This document shows positions 2,616 through 4,549 of a stretch of DNA of 22,226 bases, piece after piece (within the stretch, counting starts at the first letter, position 1; every line of letters starts with the position of its first letter). The translations under genes and the position numbers were made by a program. The stretch lies in IMG/VR virus record IMGVR_UViG_3300047168_000010, positions 1 to 22,226 of that record; one strand, written 5' to 3'. This stretch comes from a virus. Under the pieces are notes generated by a model, which had not been told where the DNA came from, ran no database searches, and saw only the letters and a list, made by a program, of their open reading frames with translations.

Positions 2616-2777
2616 CCGGCATCCCTTCGTGGTTAGAAAGATACGGCGTCAAGTCAATACCATGCAGTTTACAATCTGGTAACGCAATCGTGGCTTGCAG
2701 TCATCTAGGGGAAAGTACGGGGGGGGCGGTCCCAACACCGTCACGTAAGGTGATTGCATATCATATTAAATGATGCT

Positions 2778-3071
2778 ATGCAACCCGTCATGCGTATCCG
2801 ATCGACCGAAGTTGCAGACATGACGGCGCTTTCGCTGCGGCAGGTTCAAGCAATGTCCTTGCGCGGCGAGATACCGAGCGCAGCCTTTGTCGGCGGCGTG
2901 TGGACCTACCGGCGGGAGGCTGTAGAGCAATGGCTGACAAAGCAGGAACAGCGCCCGCGCCGGGGTTATACCGCCGCAACGAAACATGGTGGGGACGTGT
3001 CTACGTCAACGGCCGAGAATATCGCCGCTCGCTTGGAACGGCTGATCCCAAGGCGGCGGAAGCCGCGCTAA
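2778..3071 (+). CDS. excisionase-like helix-turn-helix protein
   Basis: 97 residues from ATG 2778. The first ~55 residues form a winged/AlpA-type HTH: MRIRSTEVADMTALSLRQV, then MSLRGEIPSAAFVGGVWTYRREAVEQWL. This is the usual excisionase or helix-turn-helix 17 layout, with G-x-W-x-Y-R-x-x-x-V-x-x-W as the wing and last helix. Location directly before the integrase supports a role in excision and in directing recombination. The last 47 codons overlap the integrase start in another frame, a longer version of the lambda xis/int overlap. The start is uncertain: TTG 2754 and ATG 2790 are also in frame and none has a well-spaced ribosome-binding site. Confidence 0.65.
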   Translation: MQPVMRIRSTEVADMTALSLRQVQAMSLRGEIPSAAFVGGVWTYRREAVEQWLTKQEQRPRRGYTAATKHGGDVSTSTAENIAARLERLIPRRRKPR

Positions 3072-3982
3072 AGACGTGGCGGGAGAAACTAAAAGCCGAA
3101 GCCGGCGGCGATTACTCGCGCCACCGCCTTAGCGATGCCGTGGTGAAGTGGGGGGAGGAATGGCTGCCCCGCAACGTCAAGCCTGCGGTCGCCCGCCGCT
3201 ATCTCGTGAGCGCCGGCCAGTTGCTAGACGCAATGGGCGACGGGCTGATTGTCGAGATAGATGACGCCTGGATCGGGCGCTACATCACGGCCAGGTCACG
3301 CACCGCGACCAATGCCACCATACGCCGCGACCTTACCGCGCTGTCCCGCCTCATGGCCGCGATGATCGTATGGGGATGGCGGGAAGGCAACCCGGCGAAA
3401 TGGTATGACCGTAGCGTGATCCGCGAGCGGCGGGAGCCTATGGAGCCGCCGACGCGCGCCGAGATTGCCGCCATGATCGACGCCGCTCCCGAGCGGATGC
3501 GCCCGGTGCTGCGCCTGCTGGCCGAGACGGGGATGCGCCTGGACGAAGCCGTAACGCTGCGGCGCAAGGGCGTCCGTGACGGGGCGATTACGCTCTACCG
3601 CACGAAAGCCAGCCGAGCGCGCCGCCTGCCCCTGGTGACGCCCGGAGGCGACGCGCGGGGCATTCTGCCATCAGGCGGCGACTACCTGTTTCCGGCTGGG
3701 CCGGACGGCAAGCCGTTCGCCAACTTTAGCAGCAACTTCGGCCAGCTTCGCACGCGGCTGGCGCGGGAAGCGCGGGAGGCCGGAAGGGAGCCGCCGCGCC
3801 ATTGGCGCATCCATGACATGCGCCACGCCTTCGCCGTCCGATGGCTGCGATCCGGCGGGACCATTTACGCTTTGTCAAAGCATCTTGGGCATACGTCCAT
3901 CAAAACAACGGAAATCTACTTGGACCATCTAACCGAACACGAGAGGGAGCGCGCGTTGCGCGACGGGAATACCGATGACTGA
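2930..3982 (+). CDS. int: tyrosine recombinase / phage integrase
   Basis: 350 residues. The N-terminus (GLYRRNETWWGRVYVNGREYRRSLGTADPKAAEAAL) is an arm-type DNA-binding domain, followed by a SAM-like core-binding domain (about residues 75-160) and the catalytic domain. The active-site set is complete: Arg203 (ETGMRLDEA), Lys226 (RTKASRARRLPL), His295 and Arg298 (HDMRH), His321 (KHLGHTS) and nucleophile Tyr330 (TEIYLDH). It should recombine the attP centred near 4218 with the host tRNA-Ser(GCU) gene. ATG 2930 is chosen because GGAGG lies 10 nt upstream; an earlier in-frame start at 2900 lies inside the excisionase HTH coding region and has no such site. The gene overlaps the excisionase gene, so the two are probably co-transcribed. 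Confidence 0.95.
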   Translation: MADKAGTAPAPGLYRRNETWWGRVYVNGREYRRSLGTADPKAAEAALKTWREKLKAEAGGDYSRHRLSDAVVKWGEEWLPRNVKPAVARRYLVSAGQLLDAMGDGLIVEIDDAWIGRYITARSRTATNATIRRDLTALSRLMAAMIVWGWREGNPAKWYDRSVIRERREPMEPPTRAEIAAMIDAAPERMRPVLRLLAETGMRLDEAVTLRRKGVRDGAITLYRTKASRARRLPLVTPGGDARGILPSGGDYLFPAGPDGKPFANFSSNFGQLRTRLAREAREAGREPPRHWRIHDMRHAFAVRWLRSGGTIYALSKHLGHTSIKTTEIYLDHLTEHERERALRDGNTDD

Positions 3983-4250
3983 CCAGCCATCGTTGCCGCT
4001 CCCCGGCGTCCAGCCAACAGAACCGGCGCGGCCAACGATCCATGACCGAAGCCAACTGGACCTAGCGCAATGGTTGCGCTCGCAAAAACGTGAGACCGGC
4101 ACAAAAACCGGCACAACGGACAGCGGCGATAACGGTTCTGCTAAGGCTAACTTATTAAAATGGCGGAGGGAATGGGATTCGAACCCACGGCACACCGATA
4201 AAGTGTGCAACGGTTTAGCAAACCGATGTGAACGCCAGCTAAGGTATTGA
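3975..4250 (+). CDS. possible small protein reading through attP
   Basis: 91 codons. The ATG overlaps the integrase stop (ATGACTGA), which favours coupled translation. The first ~62 residues are Pro/Thr/Gln-rich and hydrophilic (QPSLPLPGVQPTEPARP, later KRETGTKTGTTDSGDNG) with no known domain. From residue 63 the frame translates the antisense of tRNA-Ser, giving the familiar WRREWDSNPRH string seen in many spurious annotations. The GTKTGT part is encoded by the left 17-bp attP repeat. The tail past residue ~78 would change on integration. It may be a real short protein with a site-dependent tail, or merely open sequence. Confidence 0.3.
   Translation: MTDQPSLPLPGVQPTEPARPTIHDRSQLDLAQWLRSQKRETGTKTGTTDSGDNGSAKANLLKWRREWDSNPRHTDKVCNGLANRCERQLRY
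4099..4115 (+). repeat. 17-bp direct repeat, left of attP core (candidate arm-type site)
   Basis: gcacaaaaaccggcaca, identical to 4319-4335. Its centre (4107) is 111 bp left of the anticodon triplet at 4217-4219. CCGGCACA also occurs immediately to its left, overlapping it, so the motif is partly iterated. Spacing and orientation suit an integrase arm-type binding site; this is inference. Confidence 0.6.
4161..4225 (-). other. attP core: 3' portion of tRNA-Ser(GCU)
   Basis: Read on the minus strand, 4225 to 4161 gives an anticodon stem-loop (CGGT-TTGCTAA-ACCG, anticodon GCT), a long variable arm with a perfect 6-bp stem (GCACAC/GTGTGC), a T arm (GTGGG-TTCGAAT-CCCAT), the acceptor 3' strand TCCCTCC, discriminator G and CCA. 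The long variable arm and GCT anticodon identify a class II serine tRNA. The 5' acceptor strand and D arm are absent, and identity appears to stop near 4225, where the next anticodon-stem pair would be T-T. It is therefore not a functional tRNA gene. The phage carries the 3' half so that integration rebuilds the host gene. Crossover within the anticodon stem-loop is likely. Confidence 0.85.
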
Positions 4251-4280
4251 CACGTATATTCGTCAGTAACTTAGCTGGCG
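4233..4280. repeat. nested inverted repeat beside the attP core
   Basis: CGCCAGCTAAG (4233-4243) and CTTAGCTGGCG (4270-4280) are perfect 11-bp inverted arms around a 26-bp AT-rich spacer. The spacer has its own shorter symmetry (TTGAC...GTCA). There is no T-run, so a simple terminator is unlikely. It could be a protein-binding or cruciform site in attP. Confidence 0.7.
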
Positions 4281-4318
4281 CATGGAGCGCGTAGAACGCC
4301 CCTAAAGCACACAAACCC

Positions 4319-4335
4319 GCACAAAAACCGGCACA
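4319..4335 (+). repeat. 17-bp direct repeat, right of attP core (candidate arm-type site)
   Basis: Exact copy of 4099-4115 in the same orientation. Its centre (4327) is 109 bp right of the anticodon triplet. It is the second unit of a degenerate 12-bp tandem that starts at 4307 (gcacacaaaccc, gcacaaaaaccg, gcaca). The last base lies 2 bp from the stop of the membrane-protein gene. Confidence 0.6.
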
Positions 4336-4336
4336 G

Positions 4337-4549
4337 CTAGACGACGCGCCAGATGTTGAACGCCACGACTACAAGTTGCGCAATATTGAGCGGCAACAGG
4401 CCGTAGGCTCGCCGCTTGATGACTACGCAATACACTATCAGCGGTATCGAGAAAGCGTAGCACACCGCGCCGTAGAGCGTGGTAGAGCCTAGCGCCATGC
4501 CGGACAGACCTAGGACCGAAGCGACGATTTGCAGGGTGCGATCAAGCAT
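4337..4549 (-). CDS. 70-residue integral membrane protein (cargo module)
   Basis: 70 residues, almost entirely hydrophobic. Likely membrane segments are about 5-22 (TLQIVASVLGLSGMAL), 25-43 (YGAVCYAFSIPLIVYCVVI) and 50-68 (LPLNIAQLVVVAFNIW), with a short KRR loop between the second and third. The style resembles small PnuC-like or other short phage membrane proteins, but I cannot assign a function. The ATG at 4549 overlaps the stop of the DUF6065 gene by 8 bp, implying coupled translation. A longer reading from 4765 would be an Arg/Ser-rich shadow of that gene. It ends 2 bp before the right attP repeat, so it would be at the prophage edge after integration. Confidence 0.7.
   Translation of the reverse strand: MLDRTLQIVASVLGLSGMALGSTTLYGAVCYAFSIPLIVYCVVIKRRAYGLLPLNIAQLVVVAFNIWRVV

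What the first reader, a model, noticed from the sequence alone, without database searches (positions are those of the whole stretch)
4099..4335. attP with two identical 17-bp repeats placed symmetrically around the tRNA anticodon
gcacaaaaaccggcaca occurs at 4099-4115 and at 4319-4335 in the same orientation. The midpoint of the two centres is 4217, inside the anticodon triplet (4217-4219) of the tRNA-Ser(GCU) fragment. Such symmetry (-111/+109 bp) is unlikely by chance. It suggests arm-type integrase sites and a crossover at the anticodon loop. The right copy is part of a degenerate 12-bp tandem.
Basis: partly seen in the sequence, partly recalled or inferred. Interest (0 to 1): 0.65.

Follow-up and report, generated by a model that had tools for sequence, protein, structure and literature searches.

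The report
Phage integration site with integrase-binding repeats
The two repeats are most likely the docking sites where this phage's integrase grips its own DNA while inserting the phage into a host serine-tRNA gene: an ordinary integration site, whose docking motif recurs across a large, apparently undescribed family of related integrases.

Summary
In detail: GCACAAAAACCGGCACA occurs exactly twice, at 4099-4115 and 4319-4335. It flanks a tRNA-Ser(GCU) 3' half and lies beside a tyrosine integrase gene. Both copies belong to 12-bp-period arrays of GGCACAAAA-like units, two left of the core and three right.

The arm-site reading is strongly supported. The motif alone, scanned through IMG/VR, recovered about 38 integrases related to the window's (27-50% identity). 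Conversely, of 80 loci chosen only by integrase profile, 44 carry the 12-bp-spaced pair next to int; about 0.1 would be expected by chance. Where the motif has changed (L093, L094), left and right arms changed together, and the integrase N-terminal domain differs too. An Azospirillum argentinense prophage has the same layout at the same tRNA, and its attL/attR shared block ends in the anticodon arm.

The symmetry claim fails. Across 17 two-sided sites the left offset runs from -75 to -147 and the right from +108 to +145. Near-equality as good as the window's is expected about 16% of the time.

Mechanism: lambda-Int-like two-site binding, arms by the N-terminal domain and the anticodon arm by the catalytic part. 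I found no report of this arm motif. A new member of a known kind.

The parts
2754..3071 (+). candidate excisionase / directionality factor (HTH_17, MerR-like), overlapping the start of int
   Evidence: Pfam HTH_17 2e-8; PHROG 66 'excisionase and transcriptional regulator' 5e-7; role inferred
2900..3982 (+). tyrosine integrase, with N-terminal arm-binding-like domain (about residues 20-68), core-binding and catalytic domains; true start may be a little downstream of 2900
   Evidence: Pfam Phage_integrase 4e-18; PHROG 1 integrase; catalytic R213 K236 H305 R308 H331 Y340 invariant; model: 3 strands + helix at 23-68; best structural matches are full-length lambda Int
4097..4118 (+). left (P) arm: two 9-bp units 12 bp apart, GGCACAAAA (4098-4106) and GGCACAACG (4110-4118); contains the reported left copy 4099-4115
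   Evidence: homologous position in relatives
4161..4225 (-). tRNA-Ser(GCU) 3' half including CCA, from the anticodon stem to the 3' end: the attP/attB shared segment
   Evidence: sequence; similarity to tRNA-Ser of other records; intact homologue in Azospirillum prophage attL
4211..4225 (.). recombination core: anticodon stem-loop dyad CGGTTT-AGC-AAACCG, anticodon 4217-4219
   Evidence: end of the attL/attR shared block in A. argentinense; the only part common to attPs carrying the 3' half, the 5' half (L069) or neither
4233..4280 (.). inverted repeat, 19-nt arms, 10-nt loop, between core and right arm; role unknown
   Evidence: folding energy -28 kcal/mol for the hairpin, no counterpart in 17 related att sites
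4306..4338 (+). right (P') arm: three 9-bp units 12 bp apart, AGCACACAA (4306-4314), CGCACAAAA (4318-4326), GGCACAGCT (4330-4338); contains the reported right copy 4319-4335
3975..4250 (+). ORF overlapping the int stop and running through left arm and core; probably not a conserved gene, at best a small leader-like ORF
   Evidence: no Pfam or PHROG match; its last third is att-site sequence

Best explanation
The region is the attP site of a temperate tailed phage with a lambda-type two-site-binding tyrosine integrase. The integrase's N-terminal domain binds the 12-bp-spaced GGCACAAAA units in the left arm (two units) and right arm (three units). Its core-binding and catalytic domains bind the two half-sites of the anticodon stem-loop, where strand exchange occurs. 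Integration into the host tRNA-Ser(GCU) gene keeps the tRNA functional because attP carries the tRNA 3' half. Shown by sequence: repeats, arrays, core, conservation with related integrases, co-change of both arms, shared-block end at the anticodon arm. Inferred: binding, bridging, exact exchange positions. The equal distances to the anticodon are incidental.
For: Exact repeats in 12-bp arrays on both sides of a tRNA 3' half beside int. The DNA motif alone retrieves about 38 integrases homologous to the window's, E 1e-95 to 1e-22. Of 80 profile-selected integrase loci, 44 have the pair (at most 3 mismatches) at the int end versus about 0.1 with shuffled motifs; 28 of these were not obtainable from the exact-motif scan. 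Two-sided arrays with the same orientation in 17 att sites. Motif variants match left to right within each phage: L093 GGGTGCAAACGGGGGTGCAA on both sides, L094 GACAGTCCACARATTCGACCA on both sides, with altered N-terminal domains. The dimer is read in two frames at the Int C-terminus (GTKTGT or SAQNPAQ) and exceeds synonymous recoding, 29 of 52 versus 6. A. argentinense prophage of about 45 kb at tRNA-Ser(GCU) with arms at -144/+123 and a shared block ending GGTTTAGCAAACC. Lambda Int is the best full-length structural match, arm-binding domain included.
Against: No binding or recombination data. No consistent IHF site between arms and core: none in the window; 3 of 24 left and 0 of 17 right intervals in the family. 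Some relatives (for example L107, L109, L117) show weak or no arrays near int by this motif. A. brasilense L007 has only a degenerate left array. No host genome with the matching attB was found.
Confidence: 0.93

Rival explanations
1. The symmetry is a real design feature: both arms must lie at equal distance from the anticodon for the intasome to form.
For: Window -112/+108, L016 -123/+123, L102 -125/+123, L012/L023 -123/+121, L086 -105/+110 are near-symmetric.
Against: L069 -78/+145, L032 -79/+142, L136 -75/+124, L095 -147/+111, L034 -98/+122, A. argentinense -144/+123; P about 0.16 by independent draws. Signed left and right offsets correlate positively (r 0.51): where the left arm is nearer, the right arm tends to be farther, the opposite of symmetry. 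The units are direct, not inverted, repeats, so they are not related by a dyad at the core.
Confidence: 0.04
2. The repeats are operators for a regulator (for example the repressor or the excisionase) rather than integrase arm sites.
For: Direct repeats near int could bind other proteins; an HTH_17 protein is encoded next to int.
Against: The motif tracks integrase homology across many phages and tRNA targets, on both sides of the core and at the 3' end, not the promoter, of int; no promoter-like site nearby; motif variants go with altered integrase N-terminal domains.
Confidence: 0.04
3. The motif is a coding by-product of a conserved integrase C-terminal peptide.
For: In many relatives the left array lies inside the int coding sequence.
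Against: It is read in two frames giving unrelated peptides, lies outside int in the window, exceeds synonymous recoding, and recurs non-coding on the far side of the core.
Confidence: 0.01
4. Passively duplicated sequence from illegitimate recombination near attP, without function.
For: Arrays with 12-bp period can expand and contract; right offsets cluster at 11.6-11.9 bp steps.
Against: Independent conservation in sequence, position and orientation over integrases of 27-50% identity.
Confidence: 0.02

Closest known systems
Phage lambda Int / attP (PDB 1z1b, 1z1g, 5j0n; PMC4880445)
   Same: Integrase with N-terminal arm-binding domain, core-binding and catalytic domains; attP of about 240 bp with arm sites on both sides of the core, three of them clustered on the P' side (last point from general knowledge).
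   Different: Arm sequence is different; no recognisable IHF sites here; core is a tRNA anticodon arm; sequence identity about 17%.
Mycobacteriophage Pixie attP (PMC3203893)
   Same: Two direct arm-type sites left and three right of a tRNA core, all in direct orientation: the same layout as the window. In related cluster K1 phages arm-site variants are discussed together with substitutions in the integrase N-terminal domain.
   Different: Different arm consensus, tRNA-Lys; an extra inverted sixth site.
ICEMlSym R7A IntS attP (PMC11963761)
   Same: 283-bp attP with five arm-type motifs, all reported as required for efficient integration, in an alphaproteobacterium.
   Different: Consensus TGKTGGTATC; conjugative element, not a phage.
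Azospirillum argentinense MTCC4035 plasmid p1 prophage (NZ_CP032322.1, about 160.7-206.2 kb)
   Same: Homologous integrase (about 39%), same tRNA-Ser(GCU), same arm motif on both sides of the core.
   Different: Arms at -144/+123; extra perfect dimer inside int; unannotated in the record.

Membership tests
Lambda-type (arm-binding) tyrosine integrase | Catalytic residues R-K-H-R-H/W-Y | tested here: met
   R213, K236, H305, R308, H331, Y340 invariant in alignments of 16 and 20 relatives
Lambda-type (arm-binding) tyrosine integrase | N-terminal three-stranded arm-binding domain | tested here: met
   Predicted strands 23-26, 29-36, 39-44 and helix 50-68 at high confidence; lambda Int residues 7-352 aligned to model 14-347, Z 18.6 with rmsd 11 over 314 residues, i.e. 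domains match but their relative placement differs; profile match to lambda Int 9-335. Binding itself not testable here
attP with arm-type sites | Repeated short sites on both sides of the core, specific to the integrase lineage | tested here: met
attP with arm-type sites | Integrase N-terminal domain binds the repeats and they are needed for integration | not testable with these tools
   needs footprinting or mutant integration assay
tRNA-anticodon-loop attB class of integrases | Shared attP/attB block starting or ending in the anticodon stem-loop | tested here: met
   A. argentinense attL/attR block ends GGTTTAGCAAACC; attPs with 3' half, 5' half or neither share only the anticodon arm. Exact exchange points not placed
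Lambda-like IHF-assisted intasome | IHF sites between arms and core | tested here: inconclusive
   No match with at most 1 mismatch in the window; 3 of 24 left, 0 of 17 right intervals; host IHF preference unknown
tRNA-dependent lysogeny (PMC10865867) | Complete phage tRNA gene replaces the disrupted host tRNA | tested here: not met
   Window has only a 3' half, no complete tRNA; but relatives L105, L107, L109, L116, L118 do carry one

The most novel reading that the evidence does not exclude
A large integrase clade that attacks several different tRNA genes shares one arm-site code (GGCACAAAA at 12-bp steps), and many members use their own integrase gene as part of attP: the left array is written into the int C-terminal codons in either of two reading frames, and a further dimer within about 45 codons upstream of the HxLRH motif is kept at DNA level (13 of 52 genes versus about 1 after synonymous recoding), so that int coding sequence serves as an extra arm site. 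The window phage itself has the external arms but no internal dimer.
Probability: 0.5. Interest if true: 0.5.

Novelty: new member of a known kind. Interest (0 to 1): 0.38.

Why it matters
Arm-type sites are rarely identified for new integrases because they are short and differ between lineages. Here one consensus, its 12-bp period and its position relative to int and to the tRNA anticodon hold over dozens of phages. The integration sites of a whole integrase clade can therefore be located and trimmed to functional attP units from sequence alone, and natural arm/N-terminal-domain variants (GGCACAAA, GGTGCAAA, GTCCACA) offer a direct test of how the domain reads its site.

Tried and rejected
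Direct integrase search with the window protein alone found no close relatives in viral or genome contigs, and phage records gave only 27-32% hits. Host attB search with a loosened tRNA-Ser half found nothing in genome contigs, so the host stays unknown; baseplate similarity points to phages of acetic acid bacteria, as a lead only. IHF sites: no consistent signal. A terminator role for the inverted repeat: no T-run, not conserved. Helical phasing of the left arm: no significant period (p 0.65); the right-arm offsets do cluster at about 11.7-bp steps (p 0.001), which could reflect gain or loss of 12-bp units; the sites are related, so p values are optimistic. About half of the 71 motif hits have no nearby integrase: many are alanine/glutamine/lysine-rich coding repeats (AAQKAAQ) and were set aside. 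Sequence searches of papers for the motif found no relevant report; closed journals are not covered.

Full report
What was checked. The window is a whole 22,226-base virus record. The two 17-bp copies are exact, in the same orientation, and unique in the record. They lie either side of a tRNA-Ser(GCU) 3' half on the minus strand, just downstream of a tyrosine integrase gene. There is no complete tRNA in the window. Looking closer, each copy is part of an array with a 12-bp period built on GGCACAAAA: two units on the left (4098, 4110) and three on the right (4306, 4318, 4330).

Is it an integrase arm site? Three lines say yes. First, I scanned IMG/VR with the DNA pattern CGGCACAAAANNCGGCACA, without any protein information. 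It hit 71 stretches; in about 38 loci an integrase gene ends at or near the motif, and those integrases are all related to the window's, at 27-50% identity. The remaining hits are far (right-hand) arms, cut-off genes or unrelated alanine/glutamine-rich coding repeats. Second, I selected 80 loci by integrase profile only. Of these, 44 have the 12-bp-spaced pair with at most 3 mismatches of 17 near the int end, where letter-shuffled motifs give about 0.1. Sixteen are exact and so could also have been found by the motif scan; the other 28 are new. Third, in phages whose motif has changed, both arms have changed alike: L093 carries GGGTGCAAACGGGGGTGCAA on both sides, and L094 carries GACAGTCCACARATTCGACCA on both sides. 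Their integrase N-terminal domains also depart from the family pattern NLYxRGxxWWxRxxxxGxExRxSLRT. This co-change is what recognition by one protein domain predicts. It is a comparison of a few sequences, not a formal covariance test.

The integrase. Catalytic residues are invariant across the family. The model has the three-stranded sheet plus helix expected of an arm-binding domain. The best full-length structural match is lambda Int, N-terminal domain included; the large rmsd reflects different domain placement. An HTH_17 protein resembling excisionases is encoded just upstream.

Where the crossover lies. In Azospirillum argentinense MTCC4035 a homologous integrase sits beside an intact tRNA-Ser(GCU). 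A second tRNA 3' half lies about 45 kb away, and the two share a block that ends at GGTTTAGCAAACC, the anticodon arm. In that prophage the same arm motif lies at -144 and a degenerate one at +123 from the anticodon centre. Other relatives carry the tRNA 5' half (L069, L034) or, in L105, L107, L109, L116 and L118, only the anticodon stem-loop sequence. The part common to all of these is the anticodon arm, so the core most likely lies there. The exact exchange positions are not placed.

The symmetry. In 17 two-sided sites, left offsets range from -75 to -147 and right offsets from +108 to +145; the sum ranges from -36 to +67, with standard deviation 28. A sum as small as the window's (4 bp) arises in about 16% of independent draws. 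The right arm is the more constant: 121-124 bp in more than half of the sites. The window's right arm (+108) is roughly one 12-bp step nearer. Symmetry is therefore incidental. The 220-bp spacing recurs in L034 and L061, but with a -98/+122 split.

How it most likely works. By analogy with lambda Int (PMC4880445), Int bound to the arrays by its N-terminal domains reaches over to the anticodon-arm half-sites and captures the host tRNA gene. The attP-borne 3' half keeps the tRNA functional. Which bending protein, if any, helps is open: no consistent IHF consensus was found.

Known relatives and novelty. The two-left, three-right direct layout is described for mycobacteriophage Pixie (PMC3203893), and five required arm sites are reported for ICEMlSym R7A (PMC11963761). 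The kind of thing is known. The GGCACAAAA arm code of this clade I did not find reported in the open library. The most interesting extra is that the left array is often written into the int C-terminal codons in two different frames. A further dimer inside int also exceeds synonymous recoding: 13 of 52 genes versus about 1, and at most 3 in 100 recodings. These genes are related to each other, so the effective number is smaller. The window lacks this internal copy.

Limits. All evidence is comparative. The host of this phage is unknown; searches point to Rhodospirillales or acetic acid bacteria only loosely. Hits from one environment can be near-duplicates, and only identical ones were removed.

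Noticed in passing
L105:4256-4346, L107:4254-4344, L109:4249-4339, L116:4320-4410, L118:4267-4357: Complete tRNA-Ser(UGA) gene between an attP core consisting only of the anticodon arm (GGTCTTGAAAACC or GGTCTTGAAATCC) and the right arm: looks like the tRNA-dependent lysogeny arrangement described for mycobacteriophages (PMC10865867), in phages with integrases related to the window's.
   Followed up: partly
L008 about 3869-3887, L027, L136, L148-L151 and others, inside int: Extra arm-like dimer within the int coding sequence upstream of the HxLRH motif, more often than synonymous recoding allows.
   Followed up: partly
window 4233-4280: Strong 19-nt inverted repeat between core and right arm, present only in this phage among 18 att sites examined; not an intrinsic terminator by the scan. 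Unexplained; possibly an accessory-protein site.
   Followed up: partly
L006:3005-3096 (Komagataeibacter phage phiKM1): Annotated tRNA-Ser(GCU) next to an integrase in phiKM1, with a different repeat (GATACCCCCAT) next to int: another integrase lineage using the same tRNA with its own candidate arm sites.
   Followed up: no
window 3975-4250: ORF overlapping the int stop codon and reading through left arm and tRNA fragment; likely spurious, but placed where relatives have the int C-terminus or a small gene (L086 has an HNH-like ORF there, judged by eye).
   Followed up: no
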